NCBI GenBank assembly: GCA_964019415.1 | Contig: OZ025870.1 | Span: forward strand, 7,558,915 to 7,622,914 | Length of the DNA: 64,000 nucleotides | From: Ianthella basta | Taxonomy: Eukaryota > Porifera > Demospongiae > Verongiida > Ianthellidae | Direction: 5' to 3' | Part shown: positions 2,674 through 64,000 of the stretch, in pieces | Position numbering within the stretch: position 1 is the stretch's first letter | Layout: the number at the start of each line of letters is the position of its first letter | Notes under the pieces: model-generated | What the model was told of the DNA's origin: nothing | Databases searched by the model: none | What the model saw: the letters and a program-made list of their open reading frames with translations, nothing else | Position numbers and translations under genes: made by a program

Positions 2674-3924
2674 AGTGCCTGTGCAAGCTGCCTGATCTGC
2701 ACAGTTTGGAAAGAAATGAAGTGAAAAAGATGCTGCATTTCACACTGAAGTCTCTCCTGGATAAAGGCTCTGGCTACCCTAAGGAACTTGTCAGAGAATG
2801 TGTCATGTTTCTACTAATTCCAAAGCCAATGGGAGTAGGGTCATATCCCATGTACCGTGCTTATGGACAGGGCCACATAAGGTTAGATGACTTTACCCTT
2901 AGTGATATGCTTTTGGTGGTTGGCTTCCACCCATGGAGCATACAACAACTTGTGAGCCAAGGGATTCAAATTGATGCAGCATCTGTTGTGACTGGAATCA
3001 AGGAGGTAACAAAGATAAAGAAGTCAGATACGGAAGATCATCGGTCCTTGTTATTGTTCCTGTATGAGAGGTGCACAAGAAAAAAAATGCAACTGTTTCT
3101 TGGCACAGCCATTTCTGTGAAAGAAAGACAACTTATTCAACAATTCTTGACAGATGGTGCACGACTCAGTGAGAACAACATGAAGTCTCTGCTCTCCTGG
3201 GATGCCTCACACTTGGTACCATCACTGGTGCGCTCTATTTTAAAGAGTGACCCACCACTGCATGTTAAGAACAGCAAGGGTGAGAGTATTGTTGGCATTG
3301 TGGCTAGGTATGACATGACTGACTGTGTTGAGGCACTAATGATGAAAGGAGTGAAAGTTTCTGATTTGGCTAGGATATGGAACAGACAGTCTGTTGCATC
3401 TGTTTTAAGGACACTTGTTAACCAAAGAGCTCTTACCCTTGGGGATCTGTCAGATGTATCAGATGATGTTGTCTCGCATGACATGTTGTCAGCACTGCTG
3501 CAGAATGGCATGAATCCCACTTTGAAGAATGCCAAAGGAGAGAGTGTGCTAGACATTGTACTACGTTTGCAAGCATATGATCTGCTGGAATATTTAGTAT
3601 CCCATTATCAGGATCTATCTTGTTGCTCCTTAGCTTCGGTTTTCGAACACCAACCAACCTTGAGAACAACTGTTGCAACTGAAATGATAAACAAGGGTGC
3701 CAGTGTTTGCTCATGCAAGGACAAGCTTAGCCCTGTGACAGTGTTGAATAGGCATCTAACCCAAGCAATCAGGAGAAAAGCTATGCAACAAGAGGTGCGC
3801 ACTATAATGGACAACCTAGTTCTTGTTCTGGAGAGGGGAGCTTCAGTACAGGATCTTGTTGAACTGGGTTCATCTCAGTTGACAACCCCTATCCACGTGG
3901 CTACAATAATTGCCATGCAAACAA
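2674..3924 (+). CDS. Copy A exon 6: ankyrin-type repeat region
   Basis: The acceptor is at 2672-2673 and the donor GTAAGT starts at 3925. The exon enters with two bases of a split codon and leaves with one, matching exon 6 of copy B (40012-41235). It encodes ankyrin-like helical pairs such as NSKGESIVGIVARYD and NAKGESVLDIVLRLQAYDLL. Near its start it keeps a block of about 83 residues (LERNEVKKMLHF to GFHPWSIQ) that copy B lacks. Further on it lacks about 72 residues that copy B keeps. The open frame runs 22 bases upstream of the acceptor and 80 bases past the donor, but that sequence is intronic by comparison with copy B. Confidence 0.85.
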
Positions 3925-6900
3925 GTAAGTGGGCATCTGGGTACTTAAATACAAAATGCAGCATCCATAACTTTAGTAATGTTAAATTGATATGCAATAC
4001 CTAGTGGTTACAGGAGAGATCCACATTCTATTGCTTGGGATAATTATACTGCATTCCATTATTAAGTGTAGTAATGAATTAAATTGCAACATTATCCTTG
4101 TTTATACACTTTATTAGGTATTAGCTGGTAAGCCTGCCTTTGGCCTCTGAAATTTCATTCAAATGTTTCCATGCAATGCTGATTACTGCACTATCCTTTA
4201 TTGTTTCTGGAAATTTTTGTGTCTCTGCCTTGTGTTCTTTTATAGAGGTACACATGACCCACCATTGAGTAGCTTCTTAGATGTACACAGATTGACAGTT
4301 TCATTTAATGTGCTTACCCTCAGAATGAGCAAAATGAATGTTGGCAGAATATAAACTTGGTTGTAGTGGGTGGTCAGAAGTTATGACATTATAATCAAAC
4401 ACACCTCCCTGAAGTACAGCCAGTCTCACTCAGTCCCAGTGTGCTTAACTGCTGATACTCTACATCCTCACTACAATTTGCTAGCATGTAACAGTCTTCC
4501 ACTGTTGGTGGTTCCTGTACATTTCCATTAAGCACTACTTCCTGATCATCTGCTGTTGCACTCTCTTTGTGTGTATTTATCTCCATTGTTACTACCTTGC
4601 AGTGAAAACTATATACCTAAAACTGGGTGTATTTGTTGTACATTTCTATACAGATAAATGCTCCTTTTTAGGTGTAGGCACTCAGATAATTCAGAGCCAT
4701 ATGTCTGCATATGCGAGCAATAACTGTATGCTCTTTCACTATCCCTGTTTATCCATCATGCTAGCAGCTTGTCTTCTTACAGTACTACATGGCGTCAGAA
4801 GGTCCTCTCCTTCTTAATGTTTATTTCAACATCCCCACATGCACTCTCTGTCATAGTCATATGCTAGGCTATATAGTGGTTTCTGGTGTGACAGCATCAC
4901 CATGTACTCCCAGAGTGACAGCAGTGACAATAGAAGATTTACCAATTGGTAGTACATGGTTGAACACTGCAGCATCTGAGCCAGAAATGATGCCAGACAC
5001 AACCTGCAAAACTCAGGCTTCACACCTGTGTACGTACATGGACACTGCACAGCTTCAGTTGGCTCAGCCTACTTCACGACTATAATTATTGTGCTTACTG
5101 GTGTTAATGAGCTCTCTTGCAATAATTGGAGCATAACTATAGTCACACCATGCACAAGTCAAGGCTCAGGGCAGTATCTGTCCCCTCCCAAGGCTGTTGT
5201 GGCAATGAGTCAAGTGACACCCGACTACACCATCCTTATACCCATCTTTAAGTCTAGAAAACGTTTAGCCCCTACTGTTTGTACTTTTTGGCAAGCACTT
5301 GCCAGTAGGTTCACATTCACTGAACCAGGAGCTGTCAAAATTGCTCATCTGGACCATTGGTCATGTTCCGTTTTGACAGACAATGGTTTTGTCCATATTT
5401 GGAAATTCAGTCACTTCCATGAAACTGTATATTAATTTGAGATGCAATCTTTATGTATAGAGTCTGGTGAGCTTGTTAAGCTCACACTGCTACCAGCTAC
5501 GTATATAGAGGCCTAGGGATCGAGACTGTGTTTGTTGTTTAGCCTTGTTAGGGCCCTAGTGTCAGCTGATTCCACTTGATTTGTGCTGTCACAAGAATGA
5601 CTAATGTCCATGCCCCGTATACTACCAGGAGAGCAAATTGGATATGCACAGCATATGTTTTAATGTGTGGACACACTCTGAGTGTTTTGCATTCCTGAGA
5701 ATGGCTATTGAGGGCATTGTCCACTGATTGCTAGTATCTGATTATTTAGAACACTCCCTTAATAAGAGCACTCTTCAAGGGGTATGCTCATGGCAGAACA
5801 CACATTCAGTGCCCTGCAAGTTCTATTTCAACTGAGTTCTGCCTTCCACCTTAACTGGGAGCTGGCCATTTGCCACGAGGCTGACAAAGGAAGAGGCAGG
5901 GGTGTGTATGGTATAGATAGCAATAGCAGGGACTGCTACATGCAGGCCAAATGCTGTTTTTCACACTGAAGCTCCTTATTTGTGCTAGTTGATGATGGAA
6001 ACCCACCACTAGCACAAGTTACAGAGGAGCAGGATCAGCATGCCACCAACAAAACATGCTCTACATTATGTTTGTCATGTAGACGCCTGCACACAAGAAA
6101 TTTTAGTATGATCATTGCAGTGGCTGGATGCTGCATGTCACTTTGGTAGACAATGTGTGTGTACTAGTAGGACCAATGGAATGTGTGAGTAGTGGTGTAG
6201 ATACCAGAGCACCCATTCAATGCATACATCTGGCTCACATGATCACTGAGACATCTTGCACAATACATTAGAGCTTGCAGCGCTCACTTGGTAAAATCCC
6301 TGAGATGACTATCATCATCTTTGCTATGTGCTGTATTTTATGTAGAATTATTTAGTGGTGGATAGGGAAATGATTCCATGACAATGTTAACATCAATAAT
6401 GTATCTCACCTTGCTCCTGCAGGATTCTGTCAACTGTTGGAGGTGGTCATCAGCAAGTGTGGTACTCTGTCAGGAAATCAGTATGTGAACTCCCAAGGCC
6501 AAACACCCCTTCATGAGGTTGCTCTCAGTAAGGGTAAACCACCTCATTGTCTTTTTGACCTACTACTCAAGGTGGGAGTTGACCCTAATGTAAGAGACAA
6601 GAGACAAAAAACTGCTATAGAGTACTGCACTGTAACAGGCAGAGACTCGACTTACAGCAAACTGACTGATTATCAAAAGGCTTTTGATGAAGATAAGCCA
6701 GATCAGGTTCCTCTTTCTCCAACTACTGAACAGGTAAAGCCAGAGGTGTCAAACAAAGCTGACACGAAGCCTGATCCTCATTTGCATAAGCAGGAGGAGA
6801 ATGAACCAGATGTGAAGCAGCCTGCTGTAAGCAAGCACACTTTGCCGGCATTGGTTGACTTGTCTATTAAGATGGTCAATATGTATGGCCTCAAAGAGCC

Positions 6901-9900
6901 ACAAAATCTTGCAAATGAGGAGCTAAGTAGCACACCTCAGACACTGGACGAGGAAGATTCACAACTGAATGATGATAGTTTGTCATCATCTGAAGAAGAA
7001 GAATCTGTTGGCTATGGGCTGCTGGCTCAAACAGAACATGTAGCCAAGAAGCAATCAGATGTGCAGAATGATTCACAGAATGATTTTGATGGGCTAGCAT
7101 GGGAGGTAGACTGCACAGAAAAGTTCAGGAAACACCTGGGTGGCCTGCCAGAATATCTTCGAAGAAAAGCAATTTCTGTTATTCAACGTCTTGCTTCTGG
7201 AGAGTGGCATCCTCGCTTTCGAAAGTGTGTCACTGGGGAGCAATCTTTGAATGTATATGAGCTAAGACTGACCAAAGGAATGCGCATTATTTGGCAAAAA
7301 GCCATAGACTACTCATCCAGGTGTTCAGAGGGCCCAAACAAAGTTGTATACTCTGAGATTATTCGCCTATGGGATGTAGTCAAACACAAGGACATACAGC
7401 AATCTGTGGATTATGTAACAGATTCACTTCAAAAAGGAAGATATTCAAATGTGAAGTTAAATTTGCAGCAGCTTACGTCTCAATCAGATGAGGTTGTATC
7501 TACAAGAGATCGTTTCCCTAGGCTATTTGTATGTGGTGAACTGAAGCAGGACCACAAGGATGCAGTCTTTTCTCCATCAGCCCTTCCCGGTGAACGGGAC
7601 TACAATGTCATTACCTTTTATGCTTTCTCTTCTGCACTTGTTCAGAGTATTCTATCTAGTGGAAATCACAGGCAGGACTTTCCTTTCAAGGGCTGGCCAG
7701 AGGAACATGATATTATCAACTTGCCTGAAGGACAGACTATTCTCCTACTTGGTAGAAGTGGAACTGGAAAAACAACCTGCTGTGTGTATCGCCTTCTGAA
7801 CCAATGTAGCATGTATTGGAAAAAGGCAGCAGGACCTTACTTTAGGCGAGTACCCTTACTGTTTATGAAGCAGACTCCTCTTGTACCTGAGGATGATGAT
7901 GGCTCACACAGCACCCATCCAGTACAAGAGAGGCAAACTGATGTACCCTCTCTAGTACCTGGTTCTATGTCGGCATTATCCAATGAAGAAAGGAGAGATA
8001 ATGTGGAGCAAGAAGACTTATACCAGAGTTGCCGGGAGGAAATGGAGAATACTTCAAGTGGAGTTGCTGCTGCTGTTACCCAGGAAATAACATCTACAGG
8101 GATGGATGTCCTACAAGAAGTTCAAGAGGGATCAATGCCTACAGAAATAGAAGCAACACAAGAAGGTAATGTATGTCTGGACCACCTTCGGCAAGTGTTC
8201 ATCACTAAGAACCCTGTCCTTGTTTCTCAAGTAAAGAAGAAATTTTATGATATGGCAGCAAGTGCTCATCACATGAAGCATCATCTACAGTATGAAACTA
8301 CAGCACTACCACCCACATTCCAGAATATTGCTGATCACAATTTTCCTATATTTCTGACATCATTTCAGTGGTTGAATCTGTTAGATGCTAGCTTAGGTGA
8401 TGGAGAGCCCTTTTTTCCTCGTAGTGAAGGTGGCGTTTTGCTAGTTGAGTTGAAAGATTCTACAGGAGAGTTTAGTAGTAGTCATGATGACATTGAGTTG
8501 TTAGATGAATTGGAGTCTGACTTTGAAGAGGATGAAGAGGTGAATGCAGTTCAGGCTGATAGAAGGGTGACACAGAGGTCAGGGGCTGATGTCTGGCGCA
8601 TTGTGGACAGTGCATACTTCTGTGATGTGATTTGGCAGCAAATCACAAAGCGTTTTTCTGAATTGCGGCGTAAATATGACCCTGTCTTAATATGGATGGA
8701 GATTCGGTCTTTCCTGAAAGGGTCATATGAAGCTCTAATGACAGGAAATGGACACCTGGATCTTGCTGAGTATGAGAAGATTGGTGCTAAAAGAGCCAGC
8801 AATTTCAGTATAGAGAGAAAGGAAGTGTACAAGCTCTTTACAGAGTATGAGAAGTATCTCTCACAGAATCGGCTCATTGACCAATGTGATTGGGTGTTTG
8901 ATCTCTTCAGGCGTCTTACAAAGCAGAGTGAAGTTTCGTTTGTAATTCATGAGGTATACATTGACGAGGTACAGGATTTCACTGAAGCAGAATTATATCT
9001 CATTATCCATTGTTGCAGGTTCCCAAATCGCCTTTTTGTTTCAGGAGACACAGCACAAAGTATAATGCGAGGAGTGTCATTTCGCTTTCAAGATCTCCAT
9101 TCACTGTTTTATCATTTCAGTGAATCCTACCTTGCAAGAGGAGCGAAGAAAACACTGCAGTTTGTACCAAAATTGCACAAACTCACTCAGAATTTTCGTT
9201 CACACTCTGGGATTCTAAACCTTGCTGCCCTGTGTATAAGGTTAATCCAGCATTTCTTCCCACATTCTATTGACATTTTGCCTGAAGACTGTGGGTTATT
9301 TCCAGGCCCTCTACCAGTTGTACTACATGCTGCTTCAACTAGTGACTTAGCTATCATCCTGAAGGGCAACAGGAGGGAAGCCTCCACTATTGAATTTGGA
9401 GCCCACCAAGCAATTCTGGTACAGTCGGATGAGGCCAAGAATACATTACCTAATGAACTAGCTGGTGCTATTGTGCTAACCATCTTTGAGGCCAAAGGAT
9501 TAGAATTTGATGATGTCCTGCTGTACAACTTCTTTGCTGATTCAAAGGTATGGATAGAGATATCCTATTATAATGGAGCTAGAATATGTTTGGGTTGCCG
9601 AAGGCGCCCCTATATTATTTTCACTTTTATGTCTTCGTATGGCTTCATGTTCGTATATATGTATGTATATATATATAAAGACCACCAGTGCAAGTTACAG
9701 TGGCCCTGGGCCAGTATGCGCACCATTTGCACCACGATGTGCCAGACAGTAAATGCGCTCAATGGCTGAAGAAAAAGACCACCAGCACAAGTTACAGCCG
9801 GTCAGAACCTGCACCGCCGCCATTGGAGTTCATGCTGCAGCAAGCAAATGTAAGCTTGCCTAAGGGCAAGCCATTGAATTGAGGGTGCATGGAAAGAAGT

Positions 9901-22950: not shown

Positions 22951-23029
22951 TGTCACATACATGCACACATCCTGCTATGAAGGTTGAGAATACTGTAGGA
23001 AATAGTCCACCTCCCCAACCATGCCTTAG

Positions 23030-28290: not shown

Positions 28291-28427
28291 TCAATCAATC
28301 AATCAATCAATCATTATTAGAGTGCACCACACCAGATGGTGCTAGGACACAGATAGGTCCAATGTAACACTATCACAATGCTACATAGACTAAATATGGA
28401 CATGTGGAGGTTGCTACATGAATAATA
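28291..28427 (-). mobile_element. LINE 3'-end fragment upstream of copy B
   Basis: Inverse of the 3' end of the LINE at 35222-36927, including the (TGAT)n tail, here as (ATCA)n at 28291-28313. Only about 115 bp of 3' UTR remains, typical of extreme 5' truncation at insertion. Confidence 0.75.
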
Positions 28428-49900: not shown

Positions 49901-52900
49901 AGAAAACAACAGGTCATATACTAAATCTACAACAAGTTGCATTGCCTAAATACATAATTATGTTACTGCAGTCACACACACATTGGCTATATCACAGTTG
50001 GCCTTCCGTGATGGCACGGTCAAAATCAATGCCACAGTCAACTGGCCGTCTGGATGATCTCGATCCTCTGATTGCCCTGACTGCAGAACGTAAGAGGGCA
50101 AATGAGATGCAGCACCTAATCAGGTACATGATCTGCAAAAAAGGGATCTGTTTCTTGTCAGAGAGAGTATCGGCAATTCTTTTAAAAAAGATGGTACACT
50201 CCCTTGCCATACCTCCAGTGGAAGCAAAGACCAAAGGTGTGAAGACTCCATGTTCAACTTCTCTCACCCTTTCAGCATATTGTCTCTTCTTCTCTTGCTC
50301 ATGCATGTGGTATACCTCAGTCAGCTACAACTGGGGGGGTATTCAAGCTTTGTTATTTCCAGGACTGGATGATTTTGTAATCATACCCTGTTGGGTGTTG
50401 GTGTGTATTCGAAGATGAAGTACAAACTCATGGAGAGTGATATCCCATGCACATTGTTGAGAGGAAGATGACCAAATTTCATTAGCATGCATGAAATGAT
50501 GAGGAGGCTGTCCTGCCAAGATGGCTCTTTTTGTGGCTTAAAACTGACTGTGAAGTGGTAGGCTTGATTGCATGCCAAGGTGCTAAGTTGATGCATTTGT
50601 CTCCATGTGGAAGAGGGTTCCATACAGTGCACATTGCCTGCATTCCATAGAACAGTTAGCACAGAAGTCAAACTGGTGATGGACAAAATGAGAAGCTGTT
50701 CCTTCGCACATTGCTTTTCATGCGTATTTGTACCAATTCTTACTCAGTATGCAAGGCTTGGTTATAACTATTAAGTGTTCATGCCCTGCTAGTTGTTTCT
50801 GTGTCTGATAGTCTCCTAGAGCAAGGTACTACAGTAGGTGATACTGTAGAGTAGATTTCAGAATGGTTGGCCAAAATGGCAAATGAGCAAATGGCCAAAT
50901 GGCGTGACATCACTTTTAGATTTACTGCTTGCCATTATGTCACACCTATATAATGTCCAGTATTGATTTTTTCTATGGATGTCACGCCAATTTGCCATTT
51001 TCCTTGTGGACAACCAGTCTGAAATTGACTGTAGGTTCCCAGGGATGATGCAGTAGTGACCAAGTGAGGCGAGGTCACTATTTCATCATCCTGTGGGAAC
51101 TTACTATCTAAGAGCCAAGTTCTAGGTGACTACAAGGTGGGAGTCTTCAAGACACAGAATAGAGAAAAATGGAATACATAGCTGAATAGCGGAATATGGA
51201 ATAGTTGAATAGTGGAATAAAAATATAAAAAGAGGGGATGCCTTGTACTCAAACAAGTGCTGCTGGCATGTGTTTGTGCCTGGAAAAGTTTCAAAGTTCA
51301 AACGAAACCAGGGAAATGGGTATGTTGATGACTCAGTTGAAGTGTTTTGCTCAGAAATGCTTATTTGAATGAAAACAAGCAGCTAATTGTAGTTTTCCTC
51401 ACAGATAAACTCAAGAAGGGTGCCATACTCTGTTCCATGTACATAAGTAGGGAGATTCGCGAGGGCTGCAACTGTGCTCTTCAAAACAACTCTTCCTGTG
51501 GGTGTTGCAACATCACAGACCCCTCTGCTCCAGTATCCACTTCTATGGTAACTGGGACTCCACCTGGATAGGTGTGGTGCAGCTCTCACCTAACCAAAAT
51601 AGAGAAAGCTTGTCTTGTTCTTCATCCTGTTCTGTCGAGGTTAGCTAATGTGCTTGGACTGGATCCTTACCGGCTGTCTTGTGTGCTCAACTAGTAGCCT
51701 TGTGCAATTGGTACCTTTTGGCTAGATGAGCTTTGTTATGGCAATTGGCTTCAAAGTACAATCTGTAAACCATAAACTCGCTACTAACTGGTCAGGAGTA
51801 CCACTGCAACTGGGAAGGTTTAGAGTGAACTGGACCCTAGGCAAGCTGACAGAGGGCAGGTTTATTGCCACACAGAGTCCTGGCATTGGCATCTGTGATC
51901 TCCAGGCTCTGGGCAATGATCAGTGCTTGGTCCAGGATCAGGTCAGGCTCCGACAACAGTTGCCACTGGTGAGCCTCGTTCTGTAGGACATTGACTAAGC
52001 GATCTCTAAGTTACTGACCTATAGATGCTTCAAATTCACACCGTATGGCTATCCTCTGTAAGTCTGCCAAGTATACTGTAACTCACTCAATGGGTTCTGC
52101 TGGTGCTGATGGAACTGATAATGTGCAGTCATGACAACCTTGAAAATGACTATGAAGTGTGTCCATTAGGTCTGTTTGGCAAGAATGCCGCACTTTCTTT
52201 CTTCCTTGATACCATTGGCTTCAAAGTACAATTGTCTGTGATCCACGTTCTACAAGATGGACTTGTCTCTGCGCAGACTGCCTCTATCCTCTCACAGCTG
52301 CGCCCACCATAAAACTTGAGAAAGATGCCACCTGCGTTGCCTGAAAGTGTAATGCAGTCAGACACAGGACACGAACACCAAACCCAGGCATCCAGTGACT
52401 TGGAACACACAACAGCAAGTCTTTAATAGCAACTTCAAGAACACGAGGCACAACGCTTGCCCTGAGCATTGGCAACAACATGTGTTACACAACACATCAT
52501 ACCGAATGCTGCAATGCACAAGAGCAACATGAACACTAAAATCAAGAATGCAATTACAAGCAAGCATCCAAGATGAAGTAAGAAAGCATATTGAGCAAGT
52601 ACGTATAACCAAGCATGTGCAATACTAGGCAAGCATCCAGAATAAGCATGGTACGTACATGCACATCTCCACACTCCCTCCCCCTTAAACAAAAAGTTGC
52701 AATATTGTGCAGTAGCATAACAGTGAGTTAAGTAACAGTGGCCGGGGAATGAAAGCTAGATCAGAGGAGGTGAACCAGAAATTAGCTACATGCCTGAGAA
52801 ATAACTGGCTTGTTGCTGTTCGACCAGATATGATATGCACTTGAATCAATCTGCTGAATGTGCTAGATTGCAATTACTGTAGAAACCAGATGACTAGCTC

Positions 52901-55900
52901 TTCAAACATATGCTATACAAATACTTAATACTGAAACAATGAACCATGTGCAGTTACTCTTCTAAATGGTCTCCGCAATGACACCCACTTGTAGTACATT
53001 TGCATGAGGAAATTGCCTTCTAATGATATGGAACACTTGCTAGCTCTGTGTGCTGTTTAATCCTCTAAGTCTCATTGTGTGCATCTGTATGTATAAGTAT
53101 GTGTCTGTTTGTCTGTCTGTAGTTGTGTGCTTGTGTGGTGTGAGTGTATACATACGTATGGTGTATGTATAATGTGTGTTTGCATGCATACGTCTGTAGG
53201 TGAGTGTGTGTACATGTGGTATGTGTGTATGATGTGTGTGCATTTACACGTGTTCATGTGTGAGTGCACTCTTGTGTGCATATGGTACATGTGTGTTTGC
53301 ATACGTGTGCTGTGGTGAGTAGGTACACATGTGTGTATGTTTGTTTGTGCTTGTGGATGATGTAGTGACTGAACGGAGCAAGTACGTACTTTGAATTGGA
53401 CCAGTACTCTGGTAGCTCATGTTTTAACTCGATTGCTTGTTCTTACTCCTTGCTTCATGCAGTATTCAAAGGCCTTGACATTGTATCATCGAAGTCAAAA
53501 CTGGAAAAAGGTTACTGACTTACTAGAGAAGCAAGGAAAGTACCAGGAATCCTTCAACTATTTGCAATCAACCGGCAAACATCTCCAAGCATTGAAGAAA
53601 GTTCTGGATTTCAAGCAGAGAGGCATTGAGGTAACCTGTACTGGTCTCACTGTAGAAGATGTAGCTTACAGAACAGCCAGACATCACCACAACAGACAGG
53701 AACTTAAACTGATAAAAGAGTGTATTGATCTGTTACCGGATGTTGATGATAAGGTAAGGCTATTCAAAGCAGCAAGGCTCTACAGAGAGGCAGTTACCCT
53801 CCTGGTGAAAGAGGATCTCCTTGAAGAGGCATTTAGGATTCTAGCTGCTCAGAATGATTATAATGAAGGCATTAAATTAGCAACCAGCAAAAGCCAAGGT
53901 AAACAAGTGCTTAGATTCCTTCTCATGAAAGCCCGTGCCTTGCCTGTGGTGCGGCATGCAATTAGAGAGATTTGTGCCTTTCAAGAAGAGCTTGACTCAT
54001 CAGCAGCTGCTCCAGATTTGTCGCGGTTCAAGGAAGAGCTGAAGACTGACTTGTTGCCCATTCTAGGGGAAATGTCCACAACTATTAACAAGTATCACTT
54101 GATGAAGGAATGTCCATTGCTGTGCATGGAAATGACCATTCTAGAGTGCATCTGTCACTTAGATGCAGCTAAGATGAGAAGGCAAACGTCTTCACCAAAT
54201 GTGTTTGGAATGGTTGAGCAAATGAGGATCTGGATTGGATTGGAGTTGGCCAACCAGTCAGGTGACACCACCTTTCCCGGGCGATGTGATGACATGAAAC
54301 TCATCTTGGGGCAATGTGAAGCTGTTGTGGACTGTTTCTGCCAATTGATTCGAATAGGTGATATTGCTACAGATATTAGTGAGACCACCTGTAGTCTTCA
54401 GGATTGGTACTGCATTCAGAAGGATGTTAGTTCTGTTGTCATCCCTAAAGAGCAGGATGTGTGGGTAAGCTTTGGTGAATGTGTGATACCAAACACTGTG
54501 ACAGATGAAGGTGCCTTGAAACTTGACAGCTCAAAGGTAATTTGCCAGTTGAAGTTTCATCTGTATCACTCTCTGAAGTGCTGGTTGAATATTTGCAAGA
54601 AAGCAATTGATAGGCAGGCTACACTGCCTTCCTTTGATGTCTACCACCATGTGATATCTGATTGGACTACTGGTCACTTGTTGGAGGCTGGACCAATGCA
54701 AGACTTCCTCAGATGCTGTTGTTTAGCAGTTTACCTGGATATGGTCAGATCGAATGCTGTCATTGTGGAAGCCTTAGTACTCAACTCCAATGTGGACATG
54801 GTCATCCGTGAAATGCAGGAGAGGTCTCTCAGTATCCTTGCAGAGAAGCTACTGGTGAAGGAGGCAGATGTTCATGAACGTAGAAAAAAATTGAAGAGGA
54901 GAGTGAATGAATTGCTAGCAGGCAAGGAACTTGACAAAGTAATTAATGCCTTTCCTATTAAGTACAGTGAAACTGGAGAGAAATCGAGGAGAGCCCTCCT
55001 TTCTTACTTTGCACCTGAAACATCTGTCTATATTCCATTGAGTCACATGCACCTTGTGCTGCTTGATGAGTACCCAGTAGTGAAGGAAGTACTTTTGTCC
55101 CAATACCTGCCCTTTGCCTGTCGTGATGTCAATGCCTTCATGTCTGCATGGTGGATGAAGGGAAGCAATGAGTTGCAGCAACTTATGACAAGATCATTCA
55201 ATGATGATTATCATCTGAACTACATGGGTAAAAACATACACTGCTTCCTGCTCTGGAGTCAGGCTTGCAATTTACTTGACCTGCCAAAGCCAAAGCCACT
55301 GTCTTTATGCAAGATTCTCTTGGATCGCTTCTTTAGTGTTGTAATCAGACGTAAATCACTGAAGAAGTTTAACAGTGTCAATGCTCTTGTGATTTTGGAA
55401 CTTCTAGCTGCAACTCTGGTTGGTATGCTCTCTTTCCAGAATACTGTCCTGAGGGAGCAAGTGAGCACTTTTCCAAGATGTGTTCCTCATCTGTACGAGC
55501 ATGTTGTACAGCTTTTTGATGACTCACGCTCAAGGAGGGTGAGAGAGAAGAGGACAGTTCGCTTGATGGATGCTGTGTACCAAAGTGTGCAACAGGATCG
55601 AAATGTTCAGGGGATGGAAATGGAAGCACGTCGTTTCTTGATAGAAGTAATTGAGCTAATCCTTGGAATGAGTTACAAGCATGTTAATATCCTGAATCAT
55701 GTAATTACGGGGAAGAATAATGTACGGAATGGGACACTGAGAAGATACTGTATACTGCTTCTCACCCTGCTGGGAAACCTTGAATTGTATGGTCAAAGGG
55801 AGTGTTACCAGTACCGACATCAGTTGGTTGGTGTTGTTCAGTCAGCTGTACCTAAGATTACTGACAAAGAATCAGCTAGCTTGGTGATGGAGCTGTGCAA

Positions 55901-56828
55901 CCATCTATGCAAAGCGGTGCAGACTGCAACCTGTACTAATGACCTGTTCTACTTTGCTTCACAGCTCTGTGTCTTTAGTGAGAAGAGGCTTGCAGTTATT
56001 CAGAGCAATGAAAGGAGGTGGACATTACAATTCCAACCTCTTCCATGGAGTGAAGTGTCCAATGTAGTGTTTCCAGAACTCTCTTTCATGACTCATCCAG
56101 CTGTTATGACGATTCCTCAGTCATCAGAGGATGGGTTTAATGTATCATATGAGTATGATGAAGAGGAAAGTGCCCCTGGGCTTGACACAGAGGAGCAGGC
56201 TCTAGAGGTCTCATTCGAGAAGGAGTTTATTAAGAGGGGATGGTGCAGTGTTTGTGCTATGCAGGTAGTGAGTGAGCAGCGCACTAACCCCAGCCGTGAA
56301 GACATGGAAGAGCAAGGTGATGCGTCTGTTGCCGAAGACCTTATTCAGCAACATATTCAGACAAGCATGCACACAAACAATGTGGATGGATACCAGATCT
56401 TTGAAGAATTGAAGAGTTCTTTCCAGCAGCATGTTTTTCCACTAGTAACGACTATTCTGCACCATCCAAAATCAAAGACAATGCAGAACAATGACCGGCA
56501 ATTTGACAATCTGTTTTACAAGCTGCAGAAATCGTATCAGAAGCTACAGGATGTGTTGACTCCCAATGTAGCAGGACAAACCTCTCACCACTTTTGGAGT
56601 GGCAAATGTAACCTGTTAAAGACCCAAGCTGGTGAAGTGGAGAGGTTTGCCTTGGAGTTGAAAGGGATGCTGCCTGATGTGGAGCCAGTAGCAGCCAGCC
56701 AGGTTCGACAGGAATCTTCTGATGACAATGAAGTTGGGTTGGAGCTAGAGGAACAAGCTCTAGAAAATGCTGAAGGTAGGCTTGACAAAAGAGGAAAGAA
56801 GCACAGAAAAGCAAGTGAATCTAGATAA
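28918..56828 (+). CDS. TRANK1-like TPR/ankyrin/UvrD-helicase protein, copy B (complete)
   Basis: Nine exons (28918-28950, 29023-29301, 31868-32033, 37988-38721, 39435-39609, 40012-41235, 41668-44747, 49067-49723, 53463-56828) sum to 9714 nt, one uninterrupted frame of 3237 residues. Order: N-terminal TPR helices (about residues 12-160), helical linker and further TPR (160-462), ankyrin-type repeats (462-950), RelE/ParE-like segment (about 1100-1200), SF1 helicase with Walker A GRSGTGKT at 1320-1327, DEVQD at 1707-1711 and motif VI YTAVTRAK at 1949-1956, then a C-terminal solenoid. From memory vertebrate TRANK1 is near 2900 residues, so this is somewhat long. The family's role is poorly understood; helicase activity is inferred from motifs. 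It lies between copies A and C in the same orientation. Confidence 0.88.
29023..29301 (+). CDS. Copy B exon 2: N-terminal TPR pair
   Basis: 279 nt, phase 0 at both ends; acceptor CACTCACAG ends at 29022, donor GTACGT at 29302. It encodes two TPR units: [20 protein letters not shown] and the following [19 protein letters not shown]. The GNAAF and Y/A spacing is the usual TPR signature, implying a protein-binding surface at the N-terminus. Copy C differs at only a handful of bases. Confidence 0.88.
29427..30540 (-). pseudogene. Penelope-like element remnant in copy B intron 2
   Basis: Minus strand, from the right: LYALPKIHKPETPLQLIVS (RT start), a run to [20 protein letters not shown] and RYVNDTCC (RT catalytic box, first Asp changed to Asn), then GIY-YIG wording YRIPCSN and CIGQT. 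The stretch between RT and nuclease is missing. The nuclease region here has internal stops which copy C does not have at the same places. Inactive. Confidence 0.8.
30935..31690. repeat. Dispersed repeat family DR1, copy 2
   Basis: Similar to 14437-15140 and nearly identical to 61127-61880 (copy C). Non-coding. Confidence 0.65.
31868..32033 (+). CDS. Copy B exon 3: third TPR unit
   Basis: 166 nt, acceptor CTATAG ends at 31867, donor GTATGT at 32034; ends one base into a codon. It encodes [19 protein letters not shown] and a second helix ending SAMET, continuing the TPR of exon 2. It is separated from exon 2 by a 2.6-kb intron with a Penelope remnant. The same exon is present in copy C at 62061-62226. 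Confidence 0.84.
32850..35220 (-). pseudogene. Ty3/gypsy pol remnant in copy B intron 3
   Basis: Minus strand, right to left: RT (GDFKQAVNAVSK, FSKVDLSQAYQLPQLDEES, IAYLDILVSAATQEEHLQRL), RNase H with altered wording, integrase zinc and core ([45 protein letters not shown]). The RT box reads YLDI where Y-x-D-D is usual. Frameshifts break it into four readable pieces (34906-35217, 34267-34884, 33715-34071, 33190-33490). The gag-protease end is missing because the right end abuts the LINE at 35220. Confidence 0.82.
35222..36927 (+). mobile_element. 5'-truncated LINE (non-LTR retrotransposon)
   Basis: RT blocks in order: LVAFIDFSKAYDKVNR, NIGLQQGCVLTPLLFSLYIN, LLLADDTCLV (intact A-D-D), SYYKYLGCSIDEHLDL. 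After two frame breaks the C-terminal part continues (36023-36310, 36312-36785) and ends with a Cys/His cluster CKECQSGEVEDVCHWLLQC. A 3' UTR and a (TGAT)n tail end at 36927. Endonuclease and RT start are missing. Its 3' end is repeated inverted ahead of copies B and C. Confidence 0.82.
36928..37905. repeat. Dispersed repeat family DR2, copy 1, with inverted head
   Basis: Starts after the LINE tail with an inverted piece (36931-37060), a perfect 40-bp palindrome (37041-37080), then the forward copy, ending GGCATTGCAGCTAGT-like (here GGCCTTGCAGCTAGTG). Contains repeated wording such as GGTGTAGGCTGCACAA. Similar copies: 47085-48550 and a tail at 60893-60921. Non-coding. Confidence 0.65.
37988..38721 (+). 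CDS. Copy B exon 4: helical linker and TPR-like repeat
   Basis: 734 nt, acceptor TGTTAG ends at 37987, donor GTAAGT at 38722. Its two leading bases complete the codon split after exon 3. It encodes a mostly helical region (SEKDSLALYVFEQLQKRKG) ending in a TPR-like unit (HKKYDAARNNFEEAIECYF). No catalytic motif was recognised. Copies A and C of this exon lie outside the window. Confidence 0.82.
38722..39434 (+). other. Intron 4 of copy B
   Basis: No repeat or gene recognised. Confidence 0.5.
39435..39609 (+). CDS. Copy B exon 5: helical TPR-like exon
   Basis: 175 nt, acceptor CTGCAG ends at 39434, donor GTGTGT at 39610; ends one base into a codon. It encodes ALQRMADVYVKKAEIAKTK and LDLYLRSFRLQRDPEVFRS, completing the TPR-like run from exon 4. 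The donor is weaker than its neighbours, but phase fits exon 6 exactly. Confidence 0.8.
39610..40011 (+). other. Intron 5 of copy B
   Basis: 402 bp; parts align with 1-70, 1120-1270 and 2535-2640 of copy A intron 5, which fixes the relation of the window start to the missing copy A exons. Confidence 0.65.
40012..41235 (+). CDS. Copy B exon 6: ankyrin-type repeat region
   Basis: 1224 nt, acceptor AATGCAG ends at 40011, donor GTAAGT at 41236. Ankyrin-like pairs include NNKGESIVDIVARYDMTD and NAKGESVLDIVLRLQAYDLL. Relative to copy A it has lost about 83 residues right after ECLRKLPE, and it keeps about 72 residues (around LKEIVEVLLKYGVCPSD, an ankyrin-like helix pair) lost in copy A. Both differences keep the frame. 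The segments at 40252-40441 and 40792-40960 are nearly identical to copy A. Confidence 0.85.
41236..41667 (+). other. Intron 6 of copy B
   Basis: Includes an imperfect inverted pair AGTCTTGTGCACCAGACC / GGATGGTGTGCGAGACT at about 41353-41401, possibly a worn MITE of the 16620 family. Confidence 0.45.
41668..44747 (+). CDS. Copy B exon 7: ankyrin end, RelE-like segment and helicase motifs I-V
   Basis: 3080 nt, acceptor CTTGCAG ends at 41667, donor GTGAGC at 44748, ends in phase 0. It encodes an ankyrin repeat (NSHGQTPLHEVACSKGKP), an acidic linker, a RelE/ParE-like segment (WEVDCTKKFWKQLGG to YSEIIRMWDVVKHKDI), and the helicase core: Walker A GRSGTGKT from 43014, Walker B DEVQD from 44175, then GDSAQS, NFRSH and EAKGLEFDD. 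All catalytic signature residues are present, so the ATPase is probably active. The long insertion between Walker A and B is retained. Confidence 0.9.
45661..45748. mobile_element. Hairpin MITE
   Basis: Arms 45661-45700 and 45711-45748 are inverted copies (TTTACTGCAC and ATGCCGTA in both) around a GC-rich turn. No coding capacity. Confidence 0.55.
46640..46980 (+). pseudogene. Possible LINE C-terminal fragment
   Basis: The plus strand reads LLNKLPSDIKQTTSQCLKCLLYSH, with the W/L-N-K-L-P-x-x-I-K spacing common at the C-terminus of jockey/CR1-like ORF2 proteins. The rest is too worn to assign. Confidence 0.4.
47085..48550. repeat. Dispersed repeat family DR2, copy 2
   Basis: Shares wording with 37061-37905 in order (GGTGTAGGCTGCACAACAA, GAGTTTTTGAGAAAAC, CCTCAGAGCGT) and the same end (GGCGGGCATTGCAGCTAGT). 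An extra stretch of about 700 bp lies in the middle (47520-48230). Confidence 0.6.
48160..48189. repeat. 30-bp palindrome
   Basis: GTCCCCATAATTA, four-base turn, then its complement; perfect 13-bp arms. Inside DR2 copy 2. Confidence 0.8.
49067..49723 (+). CDS. Copy B exon 8: helicase motif VI and solenoid start
   Basis: 657 nt, acceptor CTCTCAG ends at 49066, donor GTATGT at 49724, phase 0. It carries YTAVTRAK (motif VI) and TPR-like helices (GDYFMKKSLWEPAQKCYGK). It is one codon shorter than the copy A exon because copy A has an additional lysine near its VQESSPEEW block. Confidence 0.87.
49992..50306 (-). pseudogene. C-terminal fragment of a retroelement endonuclease/RT protein
   Basis: The minus-strand ORF reads EKKRQYAERVREVEHGVFTP, LVFASTGGMARECTIFFKRI and ISFALLRSAVRAIRGSRSS. 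This wording is familiar from the C-terminal end of invertebrate retroelement proteins that carry a restriction-like endonuclease. No RT is present. Confidence 0.6.
50843..51034. mobile_element. MITE with imperfect terminal inverted repeats
   Basis: The left end (50843-50920, ATTTCAGAATGGTTGGCC, GGCGTGACATC) is mirrored on the right (50975-51034). About 190 bp, non-coding. Confidence 0.55.
51031..51104. repeat. Short hairpin repeat
   Basis: Arms 51031-51061 and 51073-51104 (GGTTCCCAGGGATGATG with its near complement, GTGACC) around an 11-bp turn; directly abuts the MITE at 50843-51034. Confidence 0.55.
51850..52140 (-). pseudogene. Ty3/gypsy gag fragment
   Basis: The minus strand reads LRDRLVNVLQNEAHQWQLLS then EPDLILDQALIIAQSLE, the gypsy capsid C-terminal pattern (LRDRLV, LLSEPDLTL, A..IAQ). 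Preceded by DLQRIAIRCEFEA. One stop is visible. No other parts of the element nearby, though ATTGGCTTCAAAGTACAAT occurs at both 51741 and 52213. Confidence 0.7.
53086..53346. repeat. GT-rich cryptic microsatellite
   Basis: Long (TG)-rich stretch with TGTGTG, GTATGTGTG and TGCATACGT variants, 120 bp before exon 9 of copy B. Confidence 0.75.
53463..56828 (+). CDS. Copy B exon 9: C-terminal alpha-solenoid
   Basis: 3366 nt, acceptor CATGCAG ends at 53462, stop TAA at 56826-56828. Starts YSKALTLYHRSQNW and continues TPR-like helices (EKQGKYQESFNYLQSTGKH). The open frame extends 72 bases upstream of the acceptor, but that is intron judged by copy A. The end has an acidic linker, a GWCSVCAMQVV segment and a basic tail. 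It is shorter than copy A by about 37 codons, mostly in the proline- and acid-rich linker before the Cys segment. Confidence 0.88.
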   Translation, partial: YSKALTLYHRSQNWKKVTDLLEKQGKYQESFNYLQSTGKHLQALKKVLDFKQRGIEVTCTGLTVEDVAYRTARHHHNRQELKLIKECIDLLPDVDDKVRLFKAARLYREAVTLLVKEDLLEEAFRILAAQNDYNEGIKLATSKSQGKQVLRFLLMKARALPVVRHAIREICAFQEELDSSAAAPDLSRFKEELKTDLLPILGEMSTTINKYHLMKECPLLCMEMTILECICHLDAAKMRRQTSSPNVFGMVEQMRIWIGLELANQSGDTTFPGRCDDMKLILGQCEAVVDCFCQLIRIGDIATDISETTCSLQDWYCIQKDVSSVVIPKEQDVWVSFGECVIPNTVTDEGALKLDSSKVICQLKFHLYHSLKCWLNICKKAIDRQATLPSFDVYHHVISDWTTGHLLEAGPMQDFLRCCCLAVYLDMVRSNAVIVEALVLNSNVDMVIREMQERSLSILAEKLLVKEADVHERRKKLKRRVNELLAGKELDKVINAFPIKYSETGEKSRRALLSYFAPETSVYIPLSHMHLVLLDEYPVVKEVLLSQYLPFACRDVNAFMSAWWMKGSNELQQLMTRSFNDDYHLNYMGKNIHCFLLWSQACNLLDLPKPKPLSLCKILLDRFFSVVIRRKSLKKFNSVNALVILELLAATLVGMLSFQNTVLREQVSTFPRCVPHLYEHVVQLFDDSRSRRVREKRTVRLMDAVYQSVQQDRNVQGMEMEARRFLIEVIELILGMSYKHVNILNHVITGKNNVRNGTLRRYCILLLTLLGNLELYGQRECYQYRHQLVGVVQSAVPKITDKESASLVMELCNHLCKAVQTATCTNDLFYFASQLCVFSEKRLAVIQSNERRWTLQFQPLPWSEVSNVVFPELSFMTHPAVMTIPQSSEDGFNVSYEYDEEESAPGLDTEEQALEVSFEKEFIKRGWCSVCAMQVVSEQRTNPSREDMEEQGDASVAEDLIQQHIQTSMHTNNVDGYQIFEELKSSFQQHVFPLVTTILHHPKSKTMQNNDRQFDNLFYKLQKSYQKLQDVLTPNVAGQTSHHFWSGKCNLLKTQAGEVERFALELKGMLPDVEPVAASQVRQESSDDNEVGLELEEQALENAEGRLDKRGKKHRKASESR

Positions 56829-58668: not shown

Positions 58669-58701
58669 ATGGCTGCTGGCGGGTTTCCCGTGAATGCTGT
58701 G
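58669..58701 (+). CDS. Copy C exon 1
   Basis: ATG at 58669-58671; 33 nt encoding [11 protein letters not shown], donor GTAGGT at 58702. Identical to exon 1 of copy B, which supports this start. Confidence 0.72.
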
Positions 58702-61700
58702 GTAGGTGATATACGGTGGCAGTAACAGTTACTTTATATTATGTTTAGAGCAATGTCTTTCACTCACAGGCATTGTTGGAGAAAGCCCAAAAGTGTCACG
58801 ACGAAGGAAACACAGCATTCCGTAACCACCTTTACAGCAAAGCTCAAGAGAAATACGAACTTGCTCTGTCTGTTGTTCGTCAACTGTATGAGAATTTCAG
58901 ATGGGATCCGTACGTTATGTCTGTGATTGTGGAGAAGGATCAGAAGTTGTTGTGCAACTTGTCCAAAGTTCATCGCTTGCAGGGCCACGTGATGGCAGCT
59001 GTTGAAGTGGGCAAGTTCTGTGTGGAGAAGTATCCTGAACATGCCAAGGTACGTACGTACGTAGGGTGCAGATTACGTAGTTCTTGCTGGGTAATGGTCA
59101 AAAACTATGCCCAGCTTTTTGTGAAGGTGAAGTTGCTGTCATCTTTAGGGTAAATTGCTAGTAAACATTGGGTTTAGATATGCCTGATCTGGTCTTCAAA
59201 GCTGACAAGGTAGAAGTATGTTGCTGTACAGTAGACCATACAGCAATGTCTGTTTGTCCTGGTGTGGGAACAGGTGTCAGTAACATGTGCCTCATTCCAT
59301 TGGATGGTGTGTCCAGTGGAGTTGGAGTGCTCTGCTAAGGCTGAAGTGGCTATGTCACTGTTGCGTGCTGACCTTTGATGTTCTTTCATTCGTTGGGCTA
59401 AAGTCCTACAGGTTTGTCCTATGCAAGTTCTCAGACAGTTTGAGCAAGGAATACGGTAGACGACACACGATCTCTCTCGTTCGGGGACCGGGTCCTTGGG
59501 ATGTACCAAGAGTCATCTCATCATATCGTGTTTGTTGAACGGAACGTGAATTGGATGCTTGGTTCTATTGAGTTTATGTGATGGTGGAAGTCTTTGACAA
59601 GGTCAGTTTTCATGGTGCAGCACGTGTCATTGACATATCTATTCCAAAACCAAGGAGGGGAAGAGAACGAGCGAAGTGCCCGGGACTCGACATCTTCCAT
59701 CATGAGGTCCACCACAACAACAGAGACTGGCGAGCCCATGGCAGTGCTATGCACTTGCCGATGGAAGGAGTTGCAGAACGCAAAGTAAGTGGCATTGAGG
59801 CAGAACTCAAGCAAGGTGGTGATCTCAGTTGACGTTAGTGACGTACGACCTGTTAATGAAGCGTCATCCTGGAGACACTGGGAAGCAATCTGGCAAGGTC
59901 TACCAAGACTTTAGTGAAAAGGGAAACTACATTGAAGGAAACCAAGGTCTCGTGCAAAATCAGCTGAGTTGCGAATGCTGTGTTCTGTGCTGCCTGCTAG
60001 TGGTGCTAGGATCTTGGTGAGATGCTTGGAAAGCTGGTATGTCGGTGACTGTAAAGGACACTATCAGTCGGAGTGGGGTTTCTGGTTTGTGGCTTTTGGG
60101 GAGGGCATACAAAAGGTGGATGCGTCCGGCTGAGAAAGAAAGACGGTCATAGAGTTGTTGGGAAATGAGGTTGGAATGTCTGAGTGACAGGAGGAGGGCA
60201 TTCATGCATCTTTGGAGTGTGGCCGTTGGATCATTGTCTACCGGGTCATTGGTGGAAAAGTTAGATAGCATGTTTGGGATTCTTGTCTGTCTCTCTCTTG
60301 TTCTAGACTACTTTCGCACGTTTTGTTCACAACTGAGACTGCGAGTATTTCCTTGGAGTAGTTATTGCCGGGGGGAACCAATTATCGCCAACTATAAATG
60401 GTTTGCACAGACCGCTTTTGGCCCCAGTCCGTTTTTTCGTGACAGATCTACAGAGAGAATATACGATTTTCCAGGCACGATCCTATGCTGCTAACACAAA
60501 GGAGCCCCAACGGTTGTCCTCAAACTCCTGCCGTGAGCGTCAACCAATCATGACCCAACACTCCCAGCCATCGCAGTATGTGCCTCAACTTGATCTAAAG
60601 GGAGTGGCATGCGCAAATAAACGGCTGCTGAGGAGTGTGCGGCGAAAACCAATAATGAATTGACCGTCCGGCATCTTGGATCTATGAAAAGCATAGGCAA
60701 AAAGCTATCTACAGGACGCATAGGAATCATGCACTGGACCCTCTACAGGATGCACTAGACATCCTACAGGACATACTGTACCCTCTTGCACAGAATAGGA
60801 CATACTGGACCCCCTTACAGTATACACTCGACCACCTAACAGTATGCACTGGAACCATTACAGGAGGACACACTGGACCCTCCTACAGGTGCTTGCCGAA
60901 GGCGGGCATTGCAGCTAGTGTATATCATATATCACCTATAACAGGGTAATCCTCACATTTATTAACTCTGCCACACCAACTATGTCATTTTCTCTATTGA
61001 GCTGCAAATCTAGTCTTCTAGGTAATTATTGTAAGTAGCTACCATAGTAGTGAAAATTGTACTCAAACTTGTACATAAAGCTAGAATGGGTGTTTGCTTC
61101 ACTCATGCCAAAAATATACTATATCTGTCATTGCACATGCCAGTGTTCAAGTTGTTTATACAAAGCTAAAAATTATCTTTAATGGGGCTTCACTGTCTCT
61201 CAATGGAACGAAATGTGTTCATGAATATGTGCTGATAGAGCAATTCTAATAAAAGCCTTGTGAAAGACTCTCCTGTGAGATACCTCTTCAATTATCACGA
61301 ACAGACATTGCAGAATGGCTGCGCTTGATGCTTTCTGTTTGCTAGGATTGTATTCATCTTTCTTCATACTTTGTATCAGAGAACACTAGGTGTGTATAGA
61401 ACACATTTAAGATAGAGAAAGTAATACAATAGTAGTAGAATGCTTACCTAACTGTTCTCTGTTGAGATACAGCCCCAAATACAACAGAAGGTGAATGACT
61501 TGTTGGCCAATGGTGACAGAGACAAGTAATTGTGAATCTTTGGAATTCCATCTAGGGTAGCCATTCAGCCAGCATAGGCACAAAGTAACATGTATATCCT
61601 CTTTCAGAATGTTATGCCAAGCAGTAAAACTGTCAGCAAAGTATTTTGACAGTTTGGTTGGGGTGATTTTATGATTACTACTCTGCCTGGATAGAAGACT

Positions 61701-64000
61701 TGAAACTGCTGCAAACTAGATCTGCAAATAGAAAGTGCTGTTTCTGAGGCCATCAGTATTACTGCATCCCCAACTATTGAACATCCACAGTATACACGGG
61801 GAAGTTGCTAGTAAGTAGTTCGATGTTTAGGAGCTTAGGTGCCCACAAGTGTTTTGAACATGAAATACATGTACTTGTTACTTTGAGGAGGATCAGGTTG
61901 AAATTGTTCTGGTATTACCAATCTGAGTATTCATCTTCAGCTGTTCACTGATGTGAATGGAGCTCGCCCTGTCATGCATCAGTGCACCAGTGCAATTCTC
62001 GTTTCCATTGTCTTCCATCCTAAATGCTAAAACAGAGTTATGATTTCTGTGCATCTATAGGGTATGTACCGCCTTGCTGAGGCTTACCGTGATCAAGCAA
62101 GTGGGCTGAAAGGTGGACAGAGGAGTAACCTGCTGTTGAAGTCTGCTGAGAACTTCAGTCGAGTGTTCACACTTTCTGAGGAGAAGCTAGCATATTATGA
62201 GTGCTTAATGTCTGCTATGGAAACAGGTATGTTCTCTGTCAATGCATATATTACCTTAAGGCTACAACAGTAATTTTCGTTTGTATGTTCGGACGATAAG
62301 GTGCGACAATCTTGCATGAAGGGACCATGGTTAATGCTCCACTGTGTAACAAGCTTTATTTGTTTCTGTCCTTTTCATGCCATACTTACATCCTTACTAT
62401 ATATTTTTGCTGAAAATGAGTACTTTTTGAAGTGATTTGAAACTACGTAGATATCAGGTATGAGGAATCTAATGTAATTCATGACTCAACTCAACTCTAC
62501 AGTTGCATACAACAAGGTCTAACATTACTTCCAAGCACACCTGTTGCTTCGCGTACCCTATATCTATCCTATGTATCGGGCTGATTGACACGAAAGAAGA
62601 TCGTACCGCAACCACATCTAAAGTATGTTTGAGGTATCACTCTCCCACGGGACGGTACTGTAACAGCCTAGCAGTCGTCCAGGAGTTTGTTGCTAACTCA
62701 GAGCTGACGACGATTGATAGTGAGCTGGCACTCCAACTATTTTATCGATGGACAAGTCCGGGTTGGAGTATTATTCCACACCAAGGAAGGGGCTACGTAT
62801 GCAGGCAATTCTGGATGAATCCACGATTGAAGACCAGCTAGAATCGCCAGAGAACTGCATCATCTTCACCAAATTTCCCTTGTCTTCGTCAGCAATTACC
62901 TTTCAGACCATTAATTAATTGAGTAACACTTGGAGTGTGACACGATTTCCACTCTATTCTTTCTTCTATAACTCACACAAGCTGTACCGACGCAAAACTT
63001 CGAGAAAGTGAATCAGACCCATAACTCTACCTCTGTACCAAAAATTGTGCAGGTCTGATTTTGTCCCTTTAGCCGTACCTACTACCTTAACCTTCTGTTG
63101 CAGCTGTTTACCTTCAACACGTTTTGCTGTGTTTGGTCTGACTAAGTCTAACTTAGATCGTGGTCTCCTCCCAACAACAGCTCAGCTTGAGAGATGGTGG
63201 TAGTGCCTTGGGGGGTCAGGTGATAGGTAAACAAGACGTTTGCCAATTGTGTGCTCAGAGTACCTTGAGTGACTTTCTTCAACCCATGCTTAATTTGGAC
63301 AGCAAGTTCTGCCAACCCATGAGATGCAGGTTGATATGGCGCTTATGTTAAAAATGTCTGATTCCATTCACCTTTAAGAACAGCTCAAATTCATCACTGG
63401 TGAAACACGTGCCATTATCAGTCACTACTGTCTCTGGTACACCAAACTGCACAAATACTTGTTTCAGACACTAGCTCCATTGTGGTACTTGACGTGGCAG
63501 AAGAAGTACAAATGCTTCAATCCACTTCGAGTGGGCATCAATCAAAGTTAGAAACATTCTGCCCAGGTATGGAACTGCATAATCCAGGTGGACTCTTGGT
63601 CGTGTGGGCCATTTCCATGGTTGCATCAGGGTCTCTGGAGGTGCTGACTGATTCAGCTGGCACTCCAGGTGCGCACACATTGCTCAATCTCCTTGTCTAT
63701 CCCCGGCCACCACACATACATCCTGGCAAGTGATTTCATCCTTGTCATTCCTGGATGTCCCTCGTGCAGCTCATGCAAGACCGTCTCCCTGCCTTGTTTT
63801 GGCATGATCACCCGTGATCCCCACGAGTTGCAACCCCTAATGTACTGACAACGAATCCCTTTTGGATGAAAAAGGCCAAACGTAAGGTTACCTTGGTCTG
63901 GCCAACTTTGTTGCACATACTGAAGGACAGGTGCCAGGGTTGGATCTCTCTTGGTCCAAGAACGAATCTGATCTGCTGTCACTGGTGAGTCGGCAAGATG
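58669..64000 (+). CDS. TRANK1-like protein, copy C (5' three exons, rest outside window)
   Basis: Exons 58669-58701, 58770-59048 and 62061-62226 have the same lengths, phases and splice sites as exons 1-3 of copy B. The encoded TPR start [11 protein letters not shown] and [20 protein letters not shown] differ from copy B by only a few residues. No stop or frameshift is visible. The window ends in intron 3, in the same gypsy remnant found in copy B, so ankyrin and helicase exons are expected to the right. Confidence 0.84.
58770..59048 (+). CDS. Copy C exon 2: TPR pair
   Basis: 279 nt, acceptor CACTCACAG, donor GTACGT at 59049, phase 0. Encodes the TPR pair beginning [17 protein letters not shown]. 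Compared with copy B the changes are few and mostly conservative (A to T, R to L, C to R, E to Q, G to V, S to F). Confidence 0.86.
59174..60288 (-). pseudogene. Penelope-like element remnant in copy C intron 2
   Basis: Orthologous in position to 29427-30540. Reads [39 protein letters not shown] and [20 protein letters not shown] then [12 protein letters not shown]. The nuclease part is open over 112 codons (59174-59509), unlike copy B. Same Asn in the RT box. Confidence 0.8.
60700..60921. repeat. Degenerate 22-bp minisatellite plus DR2 tail, specific to copy C
   Basis: About seven degenerate units around ACAGGATGCACTGGACCCT lie at 60712-60895, followed by a DR2 tail (CTTGCCGAAGGCGGGCATTG) at 60893-60921. 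Absent from copy B. Confidence 0.65.
61127..61880. repeat. Dispersed repeat family DR1, copy 3
   Basis: Same position in the intron and nearly same sequence as 30935-31690. Confidence 0.65.
62061..62226 (+). CDS. Copy C exon 3: third TPR unit
   Basis: 166 nt, acceptor CTATAG, donor GTATGT at 62227. Encodes [19 protein letters not shown] to SAMET; one residue differs from copy B (D to N after QRS). Confidence 0.84.
62227..64000 (+). other. Intron 3 of copy C (partial)
   Basis: Matches 32034-33810 of copy B, including the MITE half (62300-62418), and runs off the window. Confidence 0.7.
63040..64000 (-). pseudogene. Ty3/gypsy integrase remnant in copy C intron 3
   Basis: Minus strand: integrase zinc region [20 protein letters not shown] with [12 protein letters not shown], then core [16 protein letters not shown]. 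Same insertion as in copy B, truncated by the window end. Confidence 0.78.

What the first reader, a model, noticed from the sequence alone, without database searches (positions are those of the whole stretch)
2674..64000. Tandem array of at least three giant TRANK1-like helicase genes
Three head-to-tail copies of a gene of about 3200 residues that fuses TPR, ankyrin repeats and a complete SF1 helicase. Copies A (visible part) and B are intact. Tandem multiplication of a large ATPase scaffold with binding repeats is a pattern often seen in immune or genome-defence families; UvrD-like helicases also occur in bacterial defence (for example GajB of Gabija). A defence role here is inference only.
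Basis: partly seen in the sequence, partly recalled or inferred. Interest (0 to 1): 0.75.

Follow-up and report, generated by a model that had tools for sequence, protein, structure and literature searches.

The report
Tandem array of giant TRANK1 genes
A eukaryotic genome, probably of an animal, carries four head-to-tail copies (three intact) of a giant gene resembling the vertebrate interferon-induced gene TRANK1, and each encodes a domain with the fold of bacterial RelE/ParE toxins in front of a helicase motor, an arrangement also found in a little-studied bacterial protein family.

Summary
The array is real and larger than reported: four head-to-tail copies over about 175 kb. They are the only places that matched the coding part of the helicase exon genome-wide (41 of 785 candidates scored). 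Z lies upstream of the window, A is partly inside, B wholly, and C starts at 58,669. Z, A and B give stop-free spliced models of 3735, 3635 and 3237 residues (dN/dS about 0.35). C is broken. B and C are a recent duplication, mosaic at their 3' ends.

Best reading: a bacterial conflict protein turned into an inducible defence effector; vertebrate TRANK1 is interferon-induced. Activity, bacterial descent and defence role are inferred, and there is no sign of diversifying selection.

The parts
2674..3924 (+). Copy A, exon e5 (ankyrin region); earlier exons of copy A lie upstream of the window
   Evidence: ORF 2631-4001, Ank_2 below cut-off; AG/GT borders conserved in four copies
6423..9547 (+). 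Copy A, exon e6: last ankyrin repeats, RelE/ParE-like domain, SF1 helicase motifs I-V
   Evidence: PF00580 3.4e-9; motifs; splice model
7082..7427 (+). Copy A, RelE/ParE-fold domain (near-invariant Glu and Arg retained)
   Evidence: fold of the homologous B segment; conservation; coordinates
16865..17524 (+). Copy A, exon e7: helicase motif VI (AVTRAK) and 'SSPEEW' stretch
17707..21183 (+). Copy A, exon e8: C-terminal region of 1158 aa (no Pfam match, fold not predicted), stop at 21181-21183
28918..28950 (+). Copy B, exon e0 (start codon)
   Evidence: ATG conserved in four copies
29023..29301 (+). Copy B, exon e1 (TPR)
   Evidence: TPR_2 3.5e-4, below cut-off
31868..32033 (+). Copy B, exon e2
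37988..38721 (+). Copy B, exon e3
39435..39609 (+). Copy B, exon e4
40012..41235 (+). Copy B, exon e5 (ankyrin region)
   Evidence: Ank_2 1.1e-6
41668..44747 (+). Copy B, exon e6: ankyrin end, RelE/ParE-like domain, helicase motifs I-V
   Evidence: PF00580 4.7e-8
42348..42693 (+). Copy B, RelE/ParE-fold domain; near-invariant Glu298 and Arg306 (numbered from the ORF start at 41634) are Ser and Tyr here
   Evidence: AlphaFold2 and VIA-align
49067..49723 (+). Copy B, exon e7: motif VI and 'SSPEEW' stretch
   Evidence: UvrD_C_2 0.0017, below cut-off
53463..56828 (+). Copy B, exon e8: C-terminal region, stop at 56826-56828
58669..58701 (+). Copy C, exon e0
58770..59048 (+). Copy C, exon e1 (TPR)
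62061..62226 (+). Copy C, exon e2; the rest of the broken copy C lies downstream of the window (to about 86,150)
27966..56065 (+). Segment duplicated as 57677-85370 (gene B against gene C; four blocks of 95.7-97.1% identity, about 22.7 kb in all, then one of 90.6%, with unaligned gaps)
   Evidence: self-comparison of 264 kb

Best explanation
The window cuts through a four-gene array of TRANK1-type proteins that grew by unequal exchange and gene conversion. Each protein is a motor-effector scaffold: N-terminal TPR and ankyrin repeats, then a RelE/ParE-fold domain, then an SF1 (UvrD/PcrA-like) helicase, then a long C-terminal region. The core (RelE/ParE-like domain, helicase, 'EEW' stretch) is shared with a widespread unnamed bacterial family that also carries ankyrin repeats, so it most likely descends from a bacterial conflict-type protein. 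Most likely working: the repeats bind partners or foreign components, the helicase engages foreign or aberrant nucleic acid using ATP, and the RelE/ParE-like domain acts on mRNA, on ribosomes or on nucleic acid held by the motor, giving an inducible antiviral or genome-defence effector. Shown here: array, gene models, predicted fold, helicase similarity to the bacterial family, purifying selection. Inferred: bacterial descent, defence role, enzymatic activity and the order of events.
Against: No diversifying selection. PADLOC finds only partial, generic helicase matches. Of ten neighbouring genes at seven bacterial loci, scanned with Pfam only, none got a defence-type name; three had no match and several are housekeeping. 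The N-terminal segments of the eukaryotic and bacterial families match weakly by profile (hhalign P 5e-4, probability 31%), so common descent of that domain rests on fold, position and the helicase. The window's own segment has no RelE/ParE match in Pfam. ParE-type members of the superfamily are not RNases (recalled), and catalytic geometry was not tested. No expression data for this organism.
Confidence: 0.5

Rival explanations
1. The array is an ordinary recent tandem duplication of a conserved cellular helicase (RNA metabolism or genome maintenance); copy number reflects chance and there is no defence role.
For: dN/dS about 0.35 overall and no consistent excess of amino-acid change; one copy is already decaying; some bacterial relatives sit next to housekeeping genes such as MurJ and RuvB.
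Against: Vertebrate TRANK1 behaves as an interferon-stimulated or innate-response gene in several species; a toxin-fold domain and repeat scaffolds would be unusual for a maintenance helicase (inference).
Confidence: 0.3
2. The RelE/ParE-fold domain is a non-catalytic module (protein or ribosome docking, or a regulator of the helicase); the helicase alone does the work.
For: B lost two near-invariant residues of the domain yet stays intact and under selection; ParE-branch members of the superfamily do not cut RNA (recalled).
Against: Conserved Glu, Arg, Arg, Trp and His positions across the 53 aligned rows, and an Arg and a His invariant in 65 bacterial segments, look like an active or binding site.
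Confidence: 0.4
3. The copies are an assembly artefact (haplotypes or collapsed repeats laid in tandem).
For: B and C are 96-97% identical in blocks that add up to about 22.7 kb.
Against: A shares only 64-77% protein identity with Z and B in the long exons, and Z and B share 74% in the helicase exon (85% and 96% in two others); there is no N in the 264 kb.
Confidence: 0.04

Closest known systems
TRANK1 (TPR and ankyrin repeat-containing protein 1; architecture recalled)
   Same: TPR and ankyrin repeats followed by a UvrD-like SF1 helicase and a long C-terminal part; single giant protein
   Different: Here four tandem genes in one genome; the RelE/ParE-like domain is not, to my knowledge, described for TRANK1 (no paper in the held library has both whole words TRANK1 and RelE)
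Unnamed bacterial family annotated 'UvrD-helicase domain-containing', 'ankyrin repeat domain-containing' or 'AAA family ATPase' (for example Pseudoduganella L027, Silvanigrella L091; also on 138 plasmid records)
   Same: Same order RelE/ParE-like domain, SF1 helicase, 'EEW' stretch; ankyrin repeats present
   Different: 62 of 80 ORFs are 900-1060 residues stop to stop; ankyrin repeats follow the helicase instead of preceding it; no TPR block or giant C-terminal region seen in those scanned
RelE/ParE toxin superfamily (RelE, YoeB, HigB, YafQ, ParE) and the CRISPR effector Cami1
   Same: Predicted fold of the domain
   Different: Embedded in a giant multidomain host protein; antitoxin partner not looked for; activity unknown
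Gabija GajB
   Same: UvrD-like SF1 helicase
   Different: Only partial, generic model matches; a GajA partner was not looked for; other domains differ

Membership tests
TRANK1 family | N-terminal TPR plus ankyrin repeats | tested here: met
   TPR_2 in e1, Ank_2 in e5/e6; several of these hits are below the curated cut-offs
TRANK1 family | UvrD-like SF1 helicase in the middle of the protein | tested here: met
   PF00580 above cut-off in A and B; motifs I-VI
TRANK1 family | Direct sequence match to a named TRANK1 protein | not testable with these tools
   The homologues listed carry no TRANK1 name; the family name rests on recalled architecture
RelE/ParE superfamily (the fold is claimed here, not membership) | RelE/ParE fold | tested here: met
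RelE/ParE superfamily (the fold is claimed here, not membership) | Sequence-profile match above a curated cut-off | tested here: not met
   Ten family members: best Gp49 3.1e-4, 21.2 bits against cut-off 23.9; the window's own segment has none. Bacterial relatives: ParE_like in 19 of 65, best 2.2e-5 (bit score not shown there)
RelE/ParE superfamily (the fold is claimed here, not membership) | mRNA cleavage on the ribosome, or topoisomerase poisoning | not testable with these tools
   No biochemical data; catalytic residues not superposed
Bacterial RelE/ParE-helicase-ankyrin family | Helicase core closer than to any solved SF1 helicase | tested here: met
   Up to 92 bits against under 22.9 bits for any solved helicase; hhalign 4.7e-26. 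SF1 families without a solved structure were not compared and no tree was built
Bacterial RelE/ParE-helicase-ankyrin family | Homologous N-terminal domain | tested here: inconclusive
   hhalign P 5e-4, probability 31%; same fold and same position
Gabija (GajB) | Full-length match to GajB | tested here: not met
   Window exons: only partial matches of about 20-145 residues, best 3.9e-10
Gabija (GajB) | Adjacent GajA nuclease | not tested
   No search for GajA was made

The most novel reading that the evidence does not exclude
TRANK1 proteins are eukaryotic descendants of a bacterial RelE/ParE-helicase-ankyrin conflict protein and work as interferon-inducible, helicase-gated toxins that stop translation or destroy viral RNA. 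In this genome the tandem array has split the job: Z and A keep the toxin residues, whereas B has lost them and acts as a decoy, sensor or dominant regulator.
Probability: 0.2. Interest if true: 0.9.

Novelty: new variant of a known kind. Interest (0 to 1): 0.62.

Why it matters
[quoted passage not shown] one 2015 paper states that little is known about its function in any species. A bacterial toxin fold next to its helicase, in the same order as in a large bacterial family, gives a concrete biochemical hypothesis and residues to test. A natural array in which some copies kept and some lost the conserved residues is a ready-made comparison.

Tried and rejected
GajB/Gabija as closest relative: rejected, matches generic and partial. 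Assembly artefact: thought unlikely; independence of the second contig set is not shown. Viral source: two weak matches of 83 residues in viral contigs with the eukaryotic alignment, none in phages with the bacterial relative. Diversifying selection: looked for and not found; five 80-codon windows of Z-B reach 1 or more, on few changes. Faster change of the RelE-like domain than of the helicase in B: 9 of 62 against 20 of 245 conserved columns, Fisher p 0.14, not significant; B changed faster than Z or A in both. Defence context of bacterial members: no defence-type Pfam name in ten neighbour genes of seven loci; PADLOC was not run on them. Literature on TRANK1-like expansions in invertebrates: nothing relevant listed. 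Identity of the species: not found; homologues are unnamed. The C-terminal exon has 6 relatives in the database, of which P0121, P0124 and P0122 are B, A and Z themselves, and no Pfam match; its fold was not predicted. PDB sequence searches with the helicase exon showed only ankyrin-type chains among the best 60 rows. One search matched 'rele' inside longer words and was useless; one search repeated it with whole words (0 papers).

Papers: search listings; passages read in PMC6880163, PMC5702629, PMC12133567, PMC8195618, PMC4505898, PMC12231911; nothing else read.

Full report
WHAT IS THERE. The window is C3:7,558,915-7,622,914 of a 209-Mb genome in 96 contigs. No tRNA was found in the window. 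Long plus-strand ORFs carry UvrD-helicase and ankyrin matches. With 100 kb fetched on each side, tblastn and self-comparison show four head-to-tail copies: Z (-89.1 to -45.9 kb in window coordinates), A (-35.3 to 21.2 kb), B (28.9 to 56.8 kb) and C (58.7 to about 86.2 kb). Genome-wide, the helicase ORF of A gives 41 scored rows of 785 first-look candidates: four cover the coding part (1298-2637 bits) and all are these copies; the other 37 match only residues 1057-1131, almost all of which lie past the splice donor in a repeat. PF00580 gives the same four places (19 of 19 candidates scored). A further 40 kb on the left hold nothing.

GENE MODELS. Exon borders conserved between the copies give complete models of Z (3735 aa), A (3635 aa) and B (3237 aa), without stops, with AG/GT at every intron and matching phases. 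They rest on conservation between copies and open frames; no transcript was available. Z and A carry an extra N-terminal TPR/ankyrin module (exons e2p and x) that B and C lack. In C a deletion of about 370 bp removes the end of the helicase exon (the NFRSH motif and motif V), exon 7 is shifted by one base and the last exon ends early. The truncated helicase exon of C is also listed in the protein database, identical over 923 residues (P0001); whether that entry comes from an independent assembly is not known.

HISTORY. B and C match in four blocks of 95.7-97.1%, about 22.7 kb in all and including introns, whereas the 3' end of C matches A (88.8%) and the 3' end of B matches Z (93%). Synonymous divergence along Z-B ranges from 0 to 0.85 between 80-codon windows. 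This is the mark of unequal exchange and gene conversion. dN/dS is 0.361 (Z-A), 0.345 (Z-B) and 0.358 (A-B), hence purifying selection, with no clear diversifying signal.

FUNCTION. Passages seen: TRANK1 in a human ISG list, +4.7 log2 after dsDNA stimulation in crocodile cells, named as an induced ISG in infected bat organoids, regulated by IRF7 in chicken with the remark that little is known of its function in any species, in a human IFN-beta signature, and in an Aplysia co-expression module beside SAMD9 and DTX3L. This supports, but does not show, a defence role for the family. Neighbours of bacterial members gave no defence-type Pfam name in ten genes of seven loci. The most likely working is an inducible scaffold in which a helicase presents nucleic acid or ribosomes to, or gates, a RelE/ParE-like effector; this is inference.

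NOVELTY. The TRANK1 family is known; the four-copy array, the toxin-fold domain, the core shared with a bacterial family and the loss of two near-invariant residues in B and C were not found in the held papers with the searches. Those searches are listings by words; preprints were not searched and most subscription papers are not held.

Noticed in passing
12147-14174 (-): 676-aa ORF with reverse transcriptase (RVT_1 2.3e-19) in the e6-e7 intron of copy A; the region has GC 54% against 43-45% on either side: probably a retrotransposon.
   Followed up: no
35077-35913 (+): Second, different RVT_1 ORF (1.1e-22) in an intron of B; a 718-aa ORF at 152390-154543 is distantly similar (27%) to it and to 65355-66134 in C.
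   Followed up: no
27146-27673 (+): Fragment with weak NAD(P)H-binding similarity (2.2e-4, below cut-off) upstream of B, 91% identical over 81 residues to one upstream of A (-37.2 kb): perhaps part of a neighbouring gene copied along with the array.
   Followed up: partly
9671-11518 and -31.5 to -23.4 kb: Repeat element in introns of A in direct and inverted copies; the run-off of the e6 ORF into it matches 37 further places of the genome, one of them in the array itself.
   Followed up: partly
L088, L104 and L096 (whole loci): Variants of the bacterial helicase architecture: L088 (Sel1 repeats) and L104 without the N-terminal motif by my pattern, and RCC1 repeats after the helicase in L096.
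   Followed up: no
plasmid hits H1-H25 (no locus fetched): The bacterial RelE/ParE-helicase-ankyrin family is on 138 plasmid records (103 Shigella, 13 Escherichia); in the 25 rows shown it is annotated as UvrD-helicase, ankyrin, AAA ATPase or hypothetical, or not at all.
   Followed up: no
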